A stretch of DNA of 64,000 nt, taken from Candidatus Manganitrophus morganii. GTDB taxonomy: Bacteria; Nitrospirota; Nitrospiria; SBBL01; Manganitrophaceae. A program made the translations under genes and the position numbers. This document shows positions 19,177 through 27,718 of this stretch, piece by piece; the first letter of the stretch is position 1, and every line of letters begins with the position of its first letter. The stretch lies in NCBI GenBank assembly GCA_021651055.1, contig JAJHOH010000001.1, positions 2,542,001-2,606,000 of the forward strand, given 5' to 3'. The notes beneath the pieces were generated by a model. It made no database searches, had not been told where the DNA came from, and saw only the letters and a list, made by a program, of their open reading frames with translations.

Positions 19177-21762
19177 TCAGAACGGGAATCCCGCTGCGAT
19201 GTAATAATGGGGTTTCTTTTCGGCCTTGATCGTGGAGCCGATCGGGATCGCCACATCAAACCGGAAAATAATGGGATAGAACCCCAGCGTGTCGACATGC
19301 CACCGAATCCCCGCGCCGACATCGGCCTCGTATTCGTCGAACTGAAAGACGTTGTGGGAGTCGGTTACCATGCCGGTGTCGGCGAAAAGCGCCCCCTGCA
19401 AGGTATGGGTTAACGCCAGCCCGGCGAGGTTGATGTCGCTGTCGTAGACGAGCGGGAAACGGTGTTCCACCGAAATCAGCGCGATATTATCCCCCTCGAA
19501 TCGAAGCGGCGTGAAACCGCGCATCCCTTCATCTCCTCCTAAGAAAAACCGGCTGTTCTCGAAAAGCGAACCGAACGATTGGCCGATCAGAAAGCGCCCC
19601 GCGAATTCGTGATAATTCGAGAAGGAGAAAACGCGGCGCAGATCGAGGGTGACCTGGAAGAGATTTTCATATTTCCCCCCGGTAAAACGTTGATCATAAC
19701 CGAGGTTAATGTTGAATTTGGGGAATCGTCCCGTCAGCCGCTGGATGTTTAAGTTGGCAAGAAGCGGGATATTCGGGTAGCTGAGGGAGTAGCCGACGTG
19801 AACGGTCCCCGCCCGGTCCTCCGGCGGCTTGTCTTTCGGCACTTGCGGACCTTGATAGGAAAGCCCGACCGTGACGGTGTGGTTGTTCTTAAAGATGTGG
19901 CTGAACTCCACCCGGGCGGTGTCTCCTTCCTCTTTGTGAGAAAAATCGAATCCGATCCGATTCTCCCTGTCATAAACGGGCTGGAAGAGAAGCCCCGCCT
20001 TGTAGCTCAGTTGACCCGTGTTGACATCGTAGCTGGCGCCGTACCGATTCAGAAGGATCTTCCAGAGTTTCGGGTCGCGGTTGTTCAACCGATTCGGATC
20101 GCTGGAGTTCTTGTCCGGATCGAGTTCGATCACGCTGATCGGGGACGGGGTGATTAAAACCTCCTGATGAACCTCTCCATCCCCCTCCCAGACAAGCGGA
20201 ATTCTGGAGCCGTTTTCTTCGATCGCGAGGATCTCCACCGGCTCCACCCCTTCCCCATGTTTTCGAAGAGTGATCGTGGTTTTGTAAGCCTCTCCGACCT
20301 GCTCTCGATCGATTTCCTCTATTCCAAAGTCGAGCGCCGGATTCGACATCAACCACTGCTCGAAAAACCAGTCGTGTGTATGCCCGGAGGCGCGATAAAG
20401 AACCTTTCTGAAAGGGGTTTGCCCGCCCGTTTGGATTTCCTTGCGATAATCCTCTACGACCCTTCTGATCGTCTCGTGGCCCAAGAGGTTTTCCAGCTTG
20501 GAAAAGATCGCGGTCCCTTCCGGACGGGGGTGATTGAAAAACTGGATATCCTCGTTCATGATCGGCGCCACCTTCTCTTTAAAGTAACTTTGCCGAAACG
20601 GAAGATCTTTTGAATAGAGAATTTCGTCGATGACGGGGATGAATCCGATCGGCCGAAGCCACTTTTCAAGATTCGGTTTGTCCCCGTATGTTTTCTCAAG
20701 GAATCTTTCCATTTCAAGATCGGCCATTCCTTCAATGAGCCAAGCTTCTTCCCAGGGAAGCTTCTCTCGCCAAAGCAGGAGGAAAATCCCTCGGGCGACG
20801 CTGGCTTCATGGAACCGTTTCAACAACGGAAAGACTTTAAAAAGCCGGTTGTTCAAAAAGAGGAGCTTGGCGCCTGCAGTGACGAAATCTTGGTAAAGGT
20901 AGGCCTCGGCCATCTGCAGTCGCGTCGGAGGGAGCGGACCGGAATGTTCTAGAAAATGAGAGACCGCCTTCCGGGCGGCCTTCATCACCTGGTTCGCATA
21001 GGCGCGATCTCGCGGTAGGAAATGGTAGACAAGGTCAACCTGGTCAATCTTTTTCTCTTTTTTGGCAAGCTTCTTTCCAATGGAGAGTGAAAAGTAAGGA
21101 AGGAGATCGGCCTGTAATGAATAGGTCACATCCCCCCCCTCCCGGCTTTCGAATTCCGGCGGAGAAGAGGCAAGAAGATCAAGATGCTCACTCAAGGTGA
21201 GACGGATTTGAAATCGGCTGATGGGAGGGGGAAGGAGAAAATCCCACTTTCCTTCGGAGAACTGCGGCAAATAGGGATGCCAACCTCCTTGAAGCGTGAC
21301 GAGATTCCAATGATAACCGAAGACGCCGTACTTCTGCGGAATCACAGTAATGAAATGAACCAGAAACTCGAATGTCTCCTGGGGAGGAATCGGGGTCGGG
21401 AGGCGGATCTTCATCAGAATCCGTTTTTTAAAAAGCTCCGGGAAATAGGGGAGGTTTTGACCTTTCAAGTCTTGGACGGAGGTGATGATCTGCTCCCCCG
21501 GATTAAAATCGACCGGGTAGGCCCGCTTATATAGATTTTGATCGATGTCCGGATCTCTTTCAAGATAGAGGTTCGGATAAAGAAAGAGGTAAAGCTCCGA
21601 GAGAGGTTCGTCGCCGGTGTTCGTGAAGGCGATTTTCTCCGAGCCGTAGATGCGGTGCTCTTCCTCGGAATAGGCGGCTACAATATCGTATCGAGGGGTA
21701 GATGCCGAAGCGTGGGCGGGGTTCGCGATGAGCAGGAGAAGGGGGAATAATAGAATGATCAT
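19177..21762 (-). CDS. M1-peptidase-like protein fused to an Omp85-type outer-membrane barrel
   Basis: The 861-residue protein starts with a signal peptide (about 1-19, ending AHA). Residues about 24-480 follow the M1 aminopeptidase plan: an N-terminal beta domain, a YGVFGYHWN and GWHPYLPQF segment, then EEAWLIEGMADLEMERF, which matches the WLxEGxA part of M1 active sites. The zinc motif HExxH is missing; the expected positions are S321, V322 and G325, so catalysis is unlikely. Residues about 570-861 are beta strands with GGDEGMRGFTPLRFEGDN and ISVEHRFPLVYD, the Bac_surface_Ag (BamA/TamA) barrel signature, and the chain ends in Phe. No POTRA repeats are obvious. It is the only minus-strand gene here. 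Confidence 0.85.
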   Translation of the reverse strand: MIILLFPLLLLIANPAHASASTPRYDIVAAYSEEEHRIYGSEKIAFTNTGDEPLSELYLFLYPNLYLERDPDIDQNLYKRAYPVDFNPGEQIITSVQDLKGQNLPYFPELFKKRILMKIRLPTPIPPQETFEFLVHFITVIPQKYGVFGYHWNLVTLQGGWHPYLPQFSEGKWDFLLPPPISRFQIRLTLSEHLDLLASSPPEFESREGGDVTYSLQADLLPYFSLSIGKKLAKKEKKIDQVDLVYHFLPRDRAYANQVMKAARKAVSHFLEHSGPLPPTRLQMAEAYLYQDFVTAGAKLLFLNNRLFKVFPLLKRFHEASVARGIFLLLWREKLPWEEAWLIEGMADLEMERFLEKTYGDKPNLEKWLRPIGFIPVIDEILYSKDLPFRQSYFKEKVAPIMNEDIQFFNHPRPEGTAIFSKLENLLGHETIRRVVEDYRKEIQTGGQTPFRKVLYRASGHTHDWFFEQWLMSNPALDFGIEEIDREQVGEAYKTTITLRKHGEGVEPVEILAIEENGSRIPLVWEGDGEVHQEVLITPSPISVIELDPDKNSSDPNRLNNRDPKLWKILLNRYGASYDVNTGQLSYKAGLLFQPVYDRENRIGFDFSHKEEGDTARVEFSHIFKNNHTVTVGLSYQGPQVPKDKPPEDRAGTVHVGYSLSYPNIPLLANLNIQRLTGRFPKFNINLGYDQRFTGGKYENLFQVTLDLRRVFSFSNYHEFAGRFLIGQSFGSLFENSRFFLGGDEGMRGFTPLRFEGDNIALISVEHRFPLVYDSDINLAGLALTHTLQGALFADTGMVTDSHNVFQFDEYEADVGAGIRWHVDTLGFYPIIFRFDVAIPIGSTIKAEKKPHYYIAAGFPF

Positions 21763-21778: not shown

Positions 21779-21904
21779 TTTTTCTACGAGGCGATGAATC
21801 GAAACGCTTGCAGTATATGCGATTTGTGGTTGTATCGCCAGCCCCTGACGGAAACGAAACCGGACTTATTGATTCTTCCGGCTCGTTTCGGTAGAGTAAG
21901 GACC

Positions 21905-23077
21905 ATGTCGAAACCCGAATTGATTGCCTTCCTTCGTGAAGAAATCGTGAAACAGGGGCCGATCCCGTTTTCCCGCTTCATGGAGGAGGCCCTTTATCAC
22001 CCTGTCTTCGGCTACTACACTTCTCCCGGCGAGAAGATCGGTCCCCAAGGAGATTATTACACGAGCAGTTCGGTCCACCCCATTTTCGGGGAACTTCTTG
22101 CCAAGCAATTCCATCAGATGCTCCTCCCCCTCGGTGAGGGTGAATCGGGTTATATGCTGGTCGAAATGGGGGCCGGAAAGGGAAGCCTCTGCTTCGATAT
22201 TCTCAGCTATTTTCAGAGAGAATCCCCCCCCTTTTTCAGCCGCCTGAAATATATCATCATCGAAAAAAGCCCCGCGCTCAGAGAACGGCAGAGGGAGCGA
22301 TTGAATTCCTCTTTCCCGAATCAGGTTCGATGGGAAAATGAAATCCCCGATCGGCTCGTGGGTCTCCTCTTCTCGAACGAACTGCTCGATGCGATGCCGG
22401 TCCATCGTCTTCGGGTCGAGCAACAATCGGTTCAGGAGATCTATGTCGACTGGAAGGGCGACCGGTTTGTCGAAACACTCGGCCCCCCCTCCACGCCGAG
22501 GCTTCTCGATTATCTTAAAAAGATCGAAGTCCAGTTTGATCGACCGACCGAAATCGAAATCAATCTCCAAGCGGTCGATTGGATGCGCCAGGTCGGACAA
22601 TCGCTGGCGCGGGGGTATGTCGTCACAATCGATTACGGCTATCCGGCGGAAATGCTTTATACTTCCCGCCGCCCCCAGGGAACCTTCCTCTGTTATTACC
22701 GGCATGCAACCAACGAGAATCCTTACGATCATGTGGGGGAGCAAGATATGACCGCCCACATTGATTTTACTTCGCTGGCCAAAGCGGGAGAGGAGGCCGG
22801 GCTCTCCGTGATCGGATTCACCGATCAAACCCATTTTCTCATGGGGCTCGGAATTGCACAGCGAATGGAGCCGTACGCGATGGAGATGGATCGGTCGGAA
22901 AAGGCCAAGAAAGAGTTCCTCGCAATGAAGCAGTTGATGGCCCCGGAACGGATGGGACGGGTCTTCAAAATCTTAATTCAGGGGAAAAATATCCCACCCG
23001 GGCCTTCATTGGACGGACTCCAATTTAAACCTTTTTTTAAGCTCTTGACATTAATTTTTTTCTTCTTTATGATGTGA
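21905..23077 (+). CDS. SAM-dependent methyltransferase of the MidA/NDUFAF7 family
   Basis: This 390-residue protein belongs to the DUF185/COG1565 family, whose human member NDUFAF7 dimethylates an arginine of NDUFS2 (NuoD) during complex I assembly. It shows GPIPFSRFMEEALYHPVFGYY at the start, the SAM-binding VEMGAGKGSLCFDIL, and FSNELLDAMPVHRL, the family signature. The ATG at 21905 follows GTAAGGA; an in-frame ATG at 21794 adds an unrelated leader. The last 15 residues (KPFFKLLTLIFFFFMM) look non-functional because the DNA there is the nuo promoter. The gene sits 33 bases before nuoA. Confidence 0.9.
   Translation: MSKPELIAFLREEIVKQGPIPFSRFMEEALYHPVFGYYTSPGEKIGPQGDYYTSSSVHPIFGELLAKQFHQMLLPLGEGESGYMLVEMGAGKGSLCFDILSYFQRESPPFFSRLKYIIIEKSPALRERQRERLNSSFPNQVRWENEIPDRLVGLLFSNELLDAMPVHRLRVEQQSVQEIYVDWKGDRFVETLGPPSTPRLLDYLKKIEVQFDRPTEIEINLQAVDWMRQVGQSLARGYVVTIDYGYPAEMLYTSRRPQGTFLCYYRHATNENPYDHVGEQDMTAHIDFTSLAKAGEEAGLSVIGFTDQTHFLMGLGIAQRMEPYAMEMDRSEKAKKEFLAMKQLMAPERMGRVFKILIQGKNIPPGPSLDGLQFKPFFKLLTLIFFFFMM
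23045..23073 (+). promoter_or_regulatory. Near-consensus promoter of the nuo operon
   Basis: TTGACA at 23045-23050, a 17-base spacer and TATGAT at 23068-23073 match a sigma-70 promoter in 11 of 12 positions. It overlaps the last codons of the upstream methyltransferase gene. Transcription would start near 23080, about 30 bases before nuoA, leaving the GGAGG at 23094-23098 in the leader. Confidence 0.8.
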
Positions 23078-23110
23078 AACCTGCTGTCTTTTTGGAGGTT
23101 TCAGACGACG

Positions 23111-23482
23111 GTGTCGACCGATCTTTTACCGGCCAATTACCTTCCCATTGTTGTCTTTATCGCCATTGCTTTCGGCTTCGGCGCGGTCACCATTTTAGTC
23201 GGATACCTCGTTCGTCCCAGCAACCCTTATAAAGAAAAACTCTACGCGTATGAGAGCGGCATCCATCCGCTGACTGATGCGCGTCAGATGTTTCCTCTTC
23301 GTTATTATATGATCGCCATGCTCTTCGTGATCTTCGACATCGAGGTGGTTTTCCTCTATCCGTGGGCGGTGGCCTTCCAACAGCTCGGTCTTTTTGCCCT
23401 TGTAGAAATGGTTTTATTTCTTTCGATTTTGTTTGTCGGTTACTTTTACGCTTGGAAAAAAGGAGCCCTGGAATGGGATTGA
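23111..23482 (+). CDS. nuoA: NADH-quinone oxidoreductase subunit A
   Basis: NuoA is a three-helix membrane subunit of complex I at the junction of the peripheral and membrane arms. The 123-residue protein has helices at about 11-33, 65-85 and 92-113 and the conserved loop [40 protein letters not shown]. The acidic FDIE motif is intact. The start is a GTG at 23111; GGAGG lies 12 bases upstream, a slightly long spacing, but the frame and length fit the family. Its stop overlaps the nuoB start. Confidence 0.97.
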
Positions 23483-23952
23483 TGGATCGGCAGTTCGAGT
23501 CGAATATTGTGACCGCCTCGCTCGATTCGTTGGTGAACTGGGCTCGCAAATCGGCCTTATGGCCGATGACGTTCGGGCTTGCGTGTTGTGCGATTGAAAT
23601 GATCGCCTCCGTTTCCTCTCGATATGATATCGACCGATTCGGGGCCGGTGTTTTTCGGGCCTCCCCTCGGCAGTCGGACCTGATGATTGTCGCGGGAACG
23701 GTCTGCCGTAAGATGGCTCCGGTGATCCGGAGAATTTACGACCAGATGCCGGAGCCGCGTTATGTGATTTCGATGGGCTCCTGCGCCACATCGGGGAACA
23801 TTTACAACAGCTACAGCGTGGTGCAGGGGGTCGATCGCTTCGTTCCGGTTGATATCTACGTGCCAGGATGCCCGCCACGTCCTGAGGCCCTCTTTGCAGG
23901 AATCTTACGGCTTCAGGAAAAAATCATGGAACAAAAAGTCTTTACCAAGTAG
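23473..23952 (+). CDS. nuoB: NADH-quinone oxidoreductase subunit B
   Basis: NuoB carries iron-sulfur cluster N2, the last electron donor to quinone. The 159-residue protein has the four ligands C38, C39, C104 and C133, with [17 protein letters not shown] and [11 protein letters not shown] around them. The ATG at 23473 has AGGAG at 23461-23465. It overlaps nuoA by ten bases, and an ATG at 23482 is a shorter alternative. The open frame further upstream lies in nuoA and is rejected. The protein contacts NuoD at the quinone site. Confidence 0.97.
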
Positions 23953-24019
23953 AAGCGTGCCGGTGGCGCGCCTGAGATCGTCAGGGGCCGCTCGGTTTAC
24001 ACCCTACAGAGCCGTTATT

Positions 24020-24508
24020 ATGCATCCGATTGCCCAAAAAATTCAGGAGAAATTTCCCGACGCCTTCGTCGGGTCGATCGAGGCCCTCGGGGAGGTGTCC
24101 GTTTCGGTCAAGCGGGAGAAGATCGTCGCGATTTGCCGGTTTCTTCACGACGATCCGGCCCTTTCCTTCGACATGATCACCGATATCTGCTCGGTCGACT
24201 TTCCGAACGAAGAGCTTCGGTTCGAGATGATCTATCAATTTTATTCGATTCAGCGGAACCACCGCATCCGGATCAAGGCCCGTGTCCCCGAAGAGGACTG
24301 CACGATCGATTCGGTCACCGGCATCTGGCAGGGGGCGAATTTTATGGAGCGGGAGGTTTATGACATGATGGGGATCGTCTTCAACAACCATCCCGACCTC
24401 CGCCGCATCCTAATGACCGAAGATTACGATGAAGGTTTCCCCCTTCGAAAAGATTTTCCGGTGGAGGGAAAAGGATGGCGGGACACCTTTGAGTTTATGC
24501 CCTCATAA
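24020..24508 (+). CDS. nuoC: NADH-quinone oxidoreductase subunit C
   Basis: NuoC is the 30-kDa-type peripheral-arm subunit. The 162-residue protein shows FDMITDICSVDFPN near residue 52, ARVPEEDCTIDSVTGIWQGANFMEREVYDMMGI, and the C-terminal HPDLRRILMTEDYDEGFPLRKDFPVEG that marks the family. It is separate from NuoD, unlike the NuoCD fusion of E. coli. The ATG at 24020 is chosen because the frame above it is unlike any NuoC. A 67-base gap separates it from nuoB and contains no other signal. Confidence 0.96.
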   Translation: MHPIAQKIQEKFPDAFVGSIEALGEVSVSVKREKIVAICRFLHDDPALSFDMITDICSVDFPNEELRFEMIYQFYSIQRNHRIRIKARVPEEDCTIDSVTGIWQGANFMEREVYDMMGIVFNNHPDLRRILMTEDYDEGFPLRKDFPVEGKGWRDTFEFMPS

Positions 24509-24564
24509 ACAGAACAATCGGTATTCGGCCCGTTGCGATAGAAGCGGGCTATTTTAGGGTAGTA

Positions 24565-25842
24565 ATGGAAGAGCTTGATCAGAAAAAGAAGATGGAAGCC
24601 GCCCCCCCCGAAATCATCCGGTATGATGACGACGACGATTTCGATCAGGTTCTCGTTCCCGAAAAGGGGGTGAAGCGGGTCGAAGACATGCTCCTTAACA
24701 TGGGGCCGCAGCATCCTTCCACCCATGGGGTGCTCCGGATTGTCCTCGATCTCGAAGGGGAGACGATCGTCAAGGCGACCCCTCATCTCGGCTACCTCCA
24801 TCGGGGCGTCGAGAAACTCTCCGAGAATTCGACCTATCCCCAGATCATCCCCTTGACCGACCGGCTCGATTACGTCTGCGCCATGACCAACAACTATGCC
24901 TTCGTCCGGACGGTCGAGAAGCTCCTCCAGGTGCAGGTGCCGGAGCGGGCGGAGTATATCCGGACGATCGTCGCCGAAGTGCAGCGGCTCGCCGGCCATC
25001 TCTTCTGGCTGGGAACACAGGCGCTCGATATCGGCGCGATGACCGTCTTCTTCTATACCTTCCGCGAGCGGGAGGTTCTGCTCGATCTCTTTGAATTGAT
25101 CTGCGGCGCACGCCTCACGATGAGCTACTATCGTGTCGGCGGGGTCGACCGCGATTTCACCCCGGAGATCATCGATCGGCTCTACAAGTTCCTGGAGACC
25201 TTTCCGGAGAAAGTGGTCGAGTACAATACCCTCCTTGAGACCAATCGGATCTGGATCGCCCGAACCAAGAACATCGCCGTCATCTCGGCGGAAGATGCAA
25301 TCAACTTCGGCCTCACCGGCCCGGTGCTCCGGGGATCGGGGGTCAGTTACGATATCCGGAAGGCTGAGCCGTACGGGGTTTACGACAAGGTGGAGTGGGA
25401 AGTTCCGCTCGGGAAAAACGGCGACACCTATGACCGTTACTGGATCCGCGTCGAGGAGATGCGGCAGAGCGCGAAGATCGTCAAGCAGTGTCTCGACCAG
25501 CTCCCGCAGGGGCCGATCATCGCCAATCTCCCGACGATCACCTATCCTCCGCGCGACAAGGTTATGACCGATATGGAAAGTCTCATCCACCATTTTATGA
25601 TCGCCACCCGCGGATTCGACGTGCCGGAAGGGGAGGTCTACTGCGGGACGGAAGCCCCGAAGGGAGAGCTCGGCTTTTATATCCGGAGCCTGGGGGGGAA
25701 CAAGCCGTATCGTCTACGCATTCGTCCGCCGTCGTTCATTCATATGGGCGCCTTCGATCACATGGCGCGGGGTTATATGATCGCCGACATCGTCACGATC
25801 TTCGGAACCTACGACATCGTGATGGGAGAATGCGACAGGTAA
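24565..25842 (+). CDS. nuoD: NADH-quinone oxidoreductase subunit D
   Basis: NuoD (49-kDa subunit) forms the quinone site with NuoB and descends from the [NiFe] hydrogenase large subunit. The 425-residue protein has MGPQHPSTHGVLRIVLDLEGE, then LGYLHRGVEKL and TDRLDYVCAM. R80 (in HRG) and R100 (in DRLDY) match the two conserved arginines of the N2 region; the first is the methylated one in mitochondria. The hydrogenase cysteines are absent, as expected. The N-terminus carries a short acidic run (DDDDD, 21-25). The end, YDIVMGECDR, is canonical. The methyltransferase at 21905 is a candidate modifier. Confidence 0.97.
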   Translation: MEELDQKKKMEAAPPEIIRYDDDDDFDQVLVPEKGVKRVEDMLLNMGPQHPSTHGVLRIVLDLEGETIVKATPHLGYLHRGVEKLSENSTYPQIIPLTDRLDYVCAMTNNYAFVRTVEKLLQVQVPERAEYIRTIVAEVQRLAGHLFWLGTQALDIGAMTVFFYTFREREVLLDLFELICGARLTMSYYRVGGVDRDFTPEIIDRLYKFLETFPEKVVEYNTLLETNRIWIARTKNIAVISAEDAINFGLTGPVLRGSGVSYDIRKAEPYGVYDKVEWEVPLGKNGDTYDRYWIRVEEMRQSAKIVKQCLDQLPQGPIIANLPTITYPPRDKVMTDMESLIHHFMIATRGFDVPEGEVYCGTEAPKGELGFYIRSLGGNKPYRLRIRPPSFIHMGAFDHMARGYMIADIVTIFGTYDIVMGECDR

Positions 25843-25871
25843 GGTCGTTTGAGTAAAGGGAAACAAAGAAC

Positions 25872-26411
25872 ATGAGACTCAAAGTTTTATCCGATAAAGC
25901 CAAAGCAGCCATCGAAGCGGAGTTTCCAAAATATCCCGACAAGCGATCGGTTCTCCTTTCTGCGCTTCATATCGCTCAGAAAGAGGTTGGCTATCTTTCT
26001 GAGGCGGCGATGGTCGATGTCGCCGAGCTCCTGGAATTGACGCCGGTCCAGGTCTACGATGTCGCGACCTTCTATACCCTCTATAATCTCAAGCCGGTCG
26101 GCAAACATGTTATCCAGGTTTGCAAAACCCTCTCCTGCGCGCTGGTTGGTGCGGGGCAGATCATCGAACACCTTCAAAGCCGCCTTGGAATCCGGATCGG
26201 CGAGACCACCCCGGACGGCCTCTTCAGCCTCAAGTTGGTTGAATGCCTCGCCTCGTGCGGAACCGCTCCGATGGTCCAGATCAACAACCGCTATTATGAA
26301 AACCTGACCGCCGAGAAGGTCGACCGGATCTTGGATGATCTCAAGCGGGAGGGAAAAAGTGCCATGGCCTCCGGGCCGTTCCAGCTGCCGGTGCTAGGAG
26401 GAAAGGCCTGA
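25872..26411 (+). CDS. nuoE: NADH-quinone oxidoreductase subunit E
   Basis: NuoE (24-kDa subunit) is a thioredoxin-like protein of the NADH-dehydrogenase module and carries cluster N1a. The 179-residue sequence has the four ligands C84, C89, C125 and C129 (VCKTLSCAL and VECLASCGTAPMVQIN). The N-terminal helical part (SVLLSALHIAQKEVGYLSEAAM) is typical. The TGA overlaps the nuoF ATG. The C-terminal 15 residues, rich in Gly and Pro, have no counterpart I know and are probably flexible. Confidence 0.96.
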   Translation: MRLKVLSDKAKAAIEAEFPKYPDKRSVLLSALHIAQKEVGYLSEAAMVDVAELLELTPVQVYDVATFYTLYNLKPVGKHVIQVCKTLSCALVGAGQIIEHLQSRLGIRIGETTPDGLFSLKLVECLASCGTAPMVQINNRYYENLTAEKVDRILDDLKREGKSAMASGPFQLPVLGGKA

Positions 26412-27718
26412 TGCCGAAATACGAACTGGTGTTATTGAAAAACATGTCCCAGCCCGGCTACACCGGTACGCTCGATGAATACCGGAAGACCGGCGGCTAC
26501 ACCGCCTTCGAGAAGGTCCTCAAAGGAATTCCCCCGGCGGAAGTCATCGAGATGGTCAAGAAGTCGGGGCTGCGGGGAAGAGGGGGGGCCGGGTTCCCGA
26601 CGGGGATGAAGTGGAGCTTTATTCCGAAGGACCATCCGGGACCGAAGTATCTCTGCTGCAACGCCGACGAGAGCGAGCCGGGAACGTACAAAGATCGGCA
26701 ATTGATTGAAAACGACCCGCATCAGATGCTGGAAGGAATCGGGATCGCCTGCTACGCGATCGGCTCTCACAATGCATATGTCTACATCCGCGGAGAATTT
26801 GATTTAGGGGCGGAGATCATCCAACGGGCGATCGAAGAGGCGTACGAAGCGAACCTTTTCGGAAAGAACATCTTCGGGACCGGGTTCGATCTCGACGTCG
26901 TCCTGCACCGCGGCGCCGGCGCCTATATCTGCGGCGAGGAGACGGCGCTGCTGGAGTCGATCGAGGGAAAGCGGGGGAAGCCGAGAACCAAGCCGCCTTT
27001 TCCCGCGACGCATGGACTTTATCAAAAGCCGACGGTGGTTAACAACGTCGAAACCCTGGCGAACATTCCCTACATCATCAATCGCGGGCCGGAGTGGTTC
27101 GCCGCTCTCGGCACCCCGAAGAGCGCCGGCATGCGGGTCTTCTGCGTCAGCGGCCATGTCAACCGGCCCGGCAATTATGAAGTTCCGATGGGGATTACCC
27201 TCCGCGAGATGATCTACGAGCATGCCGGGGGAATGCGGGGCAATAAACAGTTGAAGGCGATCATCCCCGGGGGGGCCTCGGCGCCGTTTTTGACACAGGC
27301 CCATCTTGATGTGAAGATGGATTTTGAATCGATCGCGCAGGCCGGCTCGATGCTCGGATCGGGGGCGGTCACGGTGATGGATGAAGATACCTGCATGGTC
27401 TGGGCGGCGATGAACCTGATGGAGTTCTTCCATCATGAGTCGTGCGGCAAGTGCACCCCCTGCCGCGAGGGGAGCGCCTGGTTGCTGAAGATTCTGCAGC
27501 GGATTGAATATGGTCAGGGGCGGATGGAAGACCTCGATCTGCTGGTCAGCCTCTCCAAGCGGATCGAGGGGCGGACCGTCTGCGCCTTCGGCGACGCGGA
27601 AGTCGCGCCGGCCCTCTCCACGTTGAAACATTTTAGGGAAGAATACGAGACCCACATCCAAGAGCGGCGCTGTCCGTTCCGTCCCAACGTGGTACTGGCG
27701 ATGGCGGGGGGTCATTAA
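26411..27718 (+). CDS. nuoF: NADH-quinone oxidoreductase subunit F
   Basis: NuoF (51-kDa subunit) binds FMN, NADH and cluster N3, and is the entry point for electrons. The 435-residue protein shows the FMN/NADH motif GRGGAGFPTG (56-65), YICGEETALLESIEG, and the N3 cysteines in ESCGKCTPCREGS plus a later Cys in RTVCAFGD. No cysteine-rich N-terminal extension is present, so it is a plain NuoF and not a bifurcating hydrogenase HydB or NAD-formate dehydrogenase subunit. Its start overlaps the nuoE stop. Confidence 0.97.
   Translation: MPKYELVLLKNMSQPGYTGTLDEYRKTGGYTAFEKVLKGIPPAEVIEMVKKSGLRGRGGAGFPTGMKWSFIPKDHPGPKYLCCNADESEPGTYKDRQLIENDPHQMLEGIGIACYAIGSHNAYVYIRGEFDLGAEIIQRAIEEAYEANLFGKNIFGTGFDLDVVLHRGAGAYICGEETALLESIEGKRGKPRTKPPFPATHGLYQKPTVVNNVETLANIPYIINRGPEWFAALGTPKSAGMRVFCVSGHVNRPGNYEVPMGITLREMIYEHAGGMRGNKQLKAIIPGGASAPFLTQAHLDVKMDFESIAQAGSMLGSGAVTVMDEDTCMVWAAMNLMEFFHHESCGKCTPCREGSAWLLKILQRIEYGQGRMEDLDLLVSLSKRIEGRTVCAFGDAEVAPALSTLKHFREEYETHIQERRCPFRPNVVLAMAGGH

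What the first reader, a model, noticed from the sequence alone, without database searches (positions are those of the whole stretch)
19177..21762. M1-peptidase-like domain fused to an Omp85 barrel, with the zinc motif lost
The protein combines a signal peptide, an M1-type fold with WLxEGxA retained but HExxH replaced (S321, V322, G325), and a BamA-like C-terminal barrel with the GxRGF and terminal Phe signatures. Omp85 barrels usually carry POTRA domains. A peptidase-like domain in that place suggests a new secretion or assembly device in which a dead peptidase binds peptide substrates or guides them into the barrel.
Basis: partly seen in the sequence, partly recalled or inferred. Interest (0 to 1): 0.8.

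Follow-up and report, generated by a model that had tools for sequence, protein, structure and literature searches.

The report
Zinc-less M1 peptidase fused to barrel
A manganese-oxidising bacterium (and relatives in two phyla) makes an outer-membrane protein in which a complete aminopeptidase fold that has lost its zinc-binding site replaces the usual POTRA domains of a BamA-like barrel that itself seems to be two strands short, a layout we found described nowhere.

Summary
Window 19177-21762 (-) encodes an intact 861-aa protein of Ca. Manganitrophus (Nitrospirota): signal peptide, three-domain M1 fold (residues 18-565; ERAP1, Z 25.7), then an Omp85 barrel (567-861; Pfam 46.8 bits against a cut-off of 24; fold Z 20 to F. 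nucleatum BamA and E. coli TamA). It is a real, old family: full-length fusions in about 30 Nitrospirota genomes (several classes) and 13 of 294 Planctomycetota genomes, one clade (100/99), M1 and barrel equally diverged (23% between phyla), 18-residue linker in 25 of 25. No member has HExxH; the catalytic Tyr aligns with a mostly conserved Arg. New: the predicted barrel has 14 strands, apparently lacking the first two BamA/TamA strands (half of the lateral gate). No cargo gene is conserved beside it. Best reading: an outer-membrane-anchored periplasmic pseudo-peptidase binding polypeptide at a barrel mouth. Architecture and loss of the zinc site are well supported; function is inferred. New variant of the Omp85 kind, absent from the published ten-subfamily list and our literature searches.

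The parts
21703..21762 (-). signal peptide, residues 1-20 (MIILLFPLLLLIANPAHASA)
   Evidence: hydrophobic core and AxA site read by eye; no signal-peptide program was available; start codon follows an in-frame stop
21019..21693 (-). M1 N-terminal beta domain, residues 24-248, with near-invariant YPN and GGWHP motifs
   Evidence: AlphaFold model and fold match; conservation
20341..21015 (-). M1 catalytic-like helical domain, residues 250-474, zinc site lost
20731..20811 (-). remnant of the zinc site: H318 (25/25), E319 (15/25), V322 in place of the second His, W341, E344 (24/26)
   Evidence: family alignment
20626..20643 (-). FxPxxD motif, residues 374-379; D379 26/26, P376 25/26; no counterpart in the aligned active M1 proteins
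20524..20526 (-). R413, at the position of the M1 catalytic Tyr; Arg in 21 of 26, never Tyr
20122..20328 (-). third (beta) M1 domain, residues 479-547
20065..20121 (-). conserved linker LDP..D.NR...P, residues 548-566; segment 549-566 is 18 residues long in 25 of 25 members
19180..20064 (-). Omp85-type barrel, residues 567-861; 14 predicted strands; ends in Phe861
19510..19539 (-). loop 6 tip GGDEGMRGFT with RGF/RGY signature, residues 742-751

Best explanation
It is an outer-membrane protein of Omp85 descent whose POTRA domains have been replaced by a complete three-domain M1 aminopeptidase fold that lost its zinc site long ago. The protein is exported by Sec and its C-terminal barrel is put into the outer membrane. 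Because the strand number is even and the C-terminus is periplasmic, the M1 domain hangs in the periplasm, held rigidly at the barrel mouth by an 18-residue linker of fixed length. It is a pseudo-enzyme: the M1 cleft most likely binds polypeptide or peptide ends without cutting them and presents them at, or retains them near, the barrel, which acts as anchor or narrow conduit rather than as a laterally gated insertase. Shown by computation: fusion, both folds, loss of the zinc site in all members, fixed linker, family age. Predicted: 14 strands, periplasmic side. Inferred only: ligand binding and any passage through the barrel.
For: Fusion and folds. Ancient and kept: one clade 100/99 for 23 fusions against 16 active M1s; M1 and barrel equally diverged, 0.23 between phyla; full-length hits in Nitrospirota and Planctomycetota. 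No HExxH in any member; second His always V/L/I/A in the His318 register; catalytic Tyr position mostly Arg. Linker 18 residues in 25/25 while other loops vary: a fixed, functional junction rather than a loose tether. Precedent for a periplasmic enzyme-like domain on an Omp85 barrel: PlpD, patatin domain shown to stay in the periplasm (PMC11116518).
Against: Ligand binding has no direct evidence. The residues kept best in the old active site (H318, E344, D379) could be structural, or could still hold a metal. No partner or cargo gene is conserved. The strand count and sidedness rest on predicted models made from 16-18 sequences, with no control prediction of a known Omp85.
Confidence: 0.45

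Rival explanations
1. Active OMP-assembly or translocation device: the M1 domain takes the role of POTRA domains, captures unfolded outer-membrane or secreted proteins and hands them to an Omp85 barrel that opens as in BamA, TamA or FhaC.
For: Clear Omp85 descent with the L6 RGF/RGY tip and C-terminal Phe kept; the characterised Omp85 families other than PlpD assemble or move proteins (PMC11116518).
Against: Predicted loss of the first two strands, so no canonical gate strand; no conserved cargo; the genome already has three POTRA-type Omp85 proteins.
Confidence: 0.2
2. Plain anchor: the barrel only fixes an M1-like binding or adaptor domain to the inner face of the outer membrane; nothing passes through the barrel.
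For: Short barrel loops and a fixed linker; PlpD, whose domain stays periplasmic, as precedent (PMC11116518).
Against: The most conserved part of the barrel is L6 and the following strands, more than an anchor alone should need.
Confidence: 0.25
3. Still a metalloenzyme: H318 and E344 plus another ligand bind a metal and hydrolyse something else.
For: H318 25/25 and E344 24/26 conserved, D379 26/26.
Against: E319 is not kept (15/25); the second His is always V/L/I/A; the catalytic Tyr is gone.
Confidence: 0.1

Closest known systems
PlpD / patatin-like Omp85 (PL-Omp85)
   Same: enzyme-fold domain N-terminal to an Omp85 barrel, domain on the periplasmic side
   Different: PlpD has a patatin domain with a Ser-Asp catalytic dyad plus one POTRA and 16 strands (PMC11116518); here M1 fold, zinc site lost, no POTRA, 14 predicted strands
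Omp85 'Metallo' and 'WD40' subfamilies (Heinz and Lithgow 2014, PMC4104836)
   Same: non-POTRA N-terminal domain on an Omp85 barrel; PD40-Omp85 barrels of Nitrospirota gave the strongest of the three barrel profile matches tested (E 9.6e-18)
   Different: 'Metallo' there is PF00149 (calcineurin-like), WD40 is a propeller; neither is M1
TamA / BamA
   Same: barrel fold, L6 RGF, C-terminal aromatic residue
   Different: no POTRA; alignment begins at BamA residue 450 and TamA 291, after the first two strands
M1 aminopeptidases (ERAP1, PepN, LTA4H)
   Same: three-domain M1 fold, Z 22-26
   Different: no HExxH, no catalytic Tyr; fused to an outer-membrane barrel

Membership tests
Omp85 superfamily | PF01103 profile over its cut-off | tested here: met
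   46.8 bits against 24; Planctomycetota member 58.7 bits
Omp85 superfamily | L6 RGF/Y tip and C-terminal aromatic residue | tested here: met
   R748, G749 and F861 at 90% or more
Omp85 superfamily | barrel fold of BamA/TamA | tested here: met
   Z 20.1 to 9ccg, 19.9 to 4c00
Omp85 superfamily | 16-stranded barrel | tested here: not met
   14 strands in two predictions; no room for two more in the 18-residue linker or, in most members, the loops; prediction only
Omp85 superfamily | one or more POTRA domains | tested here: not met
   no POTRA in Pfam; residues 18-565 are the M1 fold
M1 peptidase family | M1 fold | tested here: met
   Z 25.7 over 445 residues
M1 peptidase family | HExxH plus third-ligand Glu zinc site | tested here: not met
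   no HExxH in any member; only E344 and perhaps H318 remain
M1 peptidase family | catalytic Tyr | tested here: not met
   aligned position is Arg in 21/26, never Tyr
M1 peptidase family | peptidase activity | not testable with these tools
   needs an assay
Omp85 'Metallo' subfamily | PF00149 domain | tested here: not met
   absent in Pfam scan at E up to 1; definition from PMC4104836
PL-Omp85 (PlpD) | patatin domain | tested here: not met
   absent in Pfam scan
WD40-Omp85 | WD40/PD40 propeller repeats | tested here: not met
   absent in P0001, present in other proteins of the phylum

The most novel reading that the evidence does not exclude
A distinct Omp85 lineage with a shortened, gate-less 14-stranded barrel whose periplasmic mouth is capped by a dead M1 peptidase that binds polypeptide ends, forming a dedicated peptide or protein handling device of the outer membrane in Nitrospirota and Planctomycetota.
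Probability: 0.3. Interest if true: 0.78.

Novelty: new variant of a known kind. Interest (0 to 1): 0.62.

Why it matters
Omp85 barrels are usually defined by 16 strands and POTRA domains. A conserved lineage that apparently drops the first two strands and swaps POTRA for a dead peptidase would make two open questions testable: which parts of an Omp85 barrel are needed for insertase or translocase work, and whether pseudo-peptidases serve as substrate receptors at the outer membrane. It also offers a stable natural M1 scaffold without zinc.

Tried and rejected
Pseudogene or frameshift artefact: rejected, intact in most of about 30 genomes; the clearest broken copy is one MAG (GAC4, L032), where secA, midA and nuoC also appear in more than one reading frame, so assembly error is likely; a few others are cut by contig ends. 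Chance similarity to M1: rejected. Cargo or partner gene beside it: none found; the nuo operon and midA on one side and diguanylate cyclase-secA-M23 on the other recur in several Nitrospirota lineages, but the other Manganitrophales families and Planctomycetota have other neighbours. Viral origin: no relative in viral contigs. Nitrospira M1 hits are active-type stand-alone peptidases without a barrel. Exact register of the old HExxH helix: unresolved; sequence alignment puts it at 324-328, counting back from E344 gives 321-325, secondary-structure spacing (own comparison with LTA4H from memory) favours 318-322; all three lack at least the second His. Profile A3 contained one active M1, so the search was repeated without it (A4): the TamA hits stayed significant, the M1 hits fell to E 0.16-0.9, so M1 descent rests on fold and on the comparison with related M1s. 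The search of the phylum of L049 (58 genomes) found nothing, which by itself shows little. Literature: no description of an M1-Omp85 protein in the searches made.

Full report
WHAT IS THERE. Window 19177-21762 on the minus strand encodes one intact 861-aa protein (P0001). The ATG follows an in-frame TAA, so the start is fixed. The window lies in a complete 4.29-Mb genome; the nearest named relatives are Candidatus Manganitrophus and Manganitrophaceae, Nitrospirota. The N-terminus looks like a Sec signal peptide (by eye; no predictor was available).

M1 PART. Pfam gives M1 only 16.1 bits, below its cut-off of 27.7, so the claim needed other evidence. An AlphaFold model from 18 family members (pLDDT 78, pTM 0.76) matches M1 peptidases over residues 18-565: best VIA-align Z 25.7 (ERAP1, 445 residues, rmsd 7.6), with IRAP, LTA4H and PepN at Z 22-25, and the 50 rows shown are all M1. 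The large rmsd probably reflects domain opening. Profile-profile comparison with seven Nitrospirota M1 proteins gives probability 99.5%, E 2.6e-23 over residues 1-551. The model shows an N-terminal beta domain (24-248), a helical catalytic-type domain (250-474) and a third beta domain (479-547).

ZINC SITE. No family member contains HExxH in the M1 part. Across the 26-row alignment, H318 is present in all 25 rows that cover it, E319 in 15 of 25, position 322 is V, L, I or A, and E344 is kept in 24 of 26 (two Gln). Arg413 (21 of 26) stands where active relatives have the catalytic Tyr. Sequence alignment with 16 active-type Planctomycetota M1 proteins suggests 324-328 instead. All registers lose the second zinc His. 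The family has a motif of its own, FxPxxD (374-379), with D379 in 26 of 26.

BARREL. Residues 597-858 match PF01103 with 46.8 bits (cut-off 24). A family profile finds TamA at E 5e-9 to 3e-8 and F. nucleatum BamA at 4e-10. A barrel-only model (pLDDT 80) matches F. nucleatum BamA (9ccg, Z 20.1, 261 residues) and TamA (4c00, Z 19.9). Both models show 14 transmembrane strands, nine before loop 6 and five after. Most alignments start at BamA residue 450 and, for the barrel-only TamA entry, residue 291, after the first two strands of those barrels (strand positions from my own knowledge), so the missing pair would be strands 1-2, which form half of the lateral gate. An independent argument: the linker from the end of the M1 fold to the first strand is 18 residues in 25 of 25 members, and most other loops are too short for two more strands. 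No known Omp85 was predicted as a control, and both models come from shallow alignments, so this is a prediction.

FAMILY. Full-length relatives: together show about 30 Nitrospirota genomes in several classes; one search shows 13 of 294 Planctomycetota genomes (some split by contig ends). Identity between phyla is about 23% in both the M1 part and the barrel, so the two have travelled together. In a tree with 16 active-type M1 proteins the 23 fusions form one group (100/99). Inactivation is therefore most simply ancestral. Closely related genomes can carry two copies (G005: L005 and L030). Other phyla were covered only by the peptide-pattern scan of GTDB contigs and 58 genomes of one further phylum.

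NEIGHBOURHOOD. In Manganitrophaceae and some deeper lineages the gene is divergent to midA-nuoABCDEF and faces diguanylate cyclase-secA-M23; nuoA/nuoB are also next to it in another class. Other families and the Planctomycetota have unrelated neighbours. No cargo gene is conserved, so the linkage looks like inherited synteny rather than a function.

HOW IT MAY WORK. An even number of strands and a periplasmic C-terminus put the M1 domain in the periplasm, as shown for the patatin domain of PlpD (PMC11116518). A fixed linker suggests a rigid dock at the barrel mouth. The simplest reading is a pseudo-peptidase receptor or vestibule on the inner face of the outer membrane. Whether substrates enter the barrel is open. 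A BamA-like insertase is less likely if strands 1-2 are really absent. Rivals: plain anchor, true assembly device, residual metalloenzyme.

COMPARISON. The ten published Omp85 subfamilies (PMC4104836) include 'Metallo' (PF00149), WD40 and patatin forms, but no M1 form was found in the text; searches of the held literature found none. Of three barrel comparisons made, the strongest was with PD40-Omp85 proteins of the same phylum (E 9.6e-18) rather than the genome's own BamA-like (9.7e-10) or TamA-like (9.3e-7) proteins (the last two were single sequences, so the E-values are not strictly comparable). It is of Omp85 descent but fails two usual defining features (16 strands by prediction, POTRA), hence 'new variant'.

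Noticed in passing
L095:556-3450 (+) = G000:C1 about 1180055-1182949; also L083, L084, L085, L089, L096: PD40-propeller Omp85-type proteins of Nitrospirota carry an N-terminal intact HEY[AT]H motif followed by PxW..EG.AT..E, a gluzincin-like site that Pfam does not report; thus a second, apparently active zincin-barrel design in the same genome.
   Followed up: partly
L079:1725-4733, L080:1273-4308: M1 peptidases with intact HEILH fused to a ChaN (haem-binding, PF04187) domain and a PDZ domain in Nitrospirota.
   Followed up: no
L102 (G000:C1:3234751 region): An active-type M1 (HEILH) fused to what looks by eye like an M28 peptidase in the same genome.
   Followed up: no
L032 (Ca. Manganitrophus sp. 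GAC4, CP114561.1): Several neighbouring genes (secA, midA, nuoC, the M1-Omp85 gene) match in more than one reading frame, which points to indel errors in that assembly.
   Followed up: no
window 21794-27718: Divergent midA-nuoABCDEF cluster next to the gene; nuoA/nuoB adjacency is kept in another class of the phylum (L133-L135).
   Followed up: partly
L030 and L005 (genome G005): A related genome of the same genus has two copies of the M1-Omp85 gene; the copies are 54% and 68% identical to the window protein.
   Followed up: no
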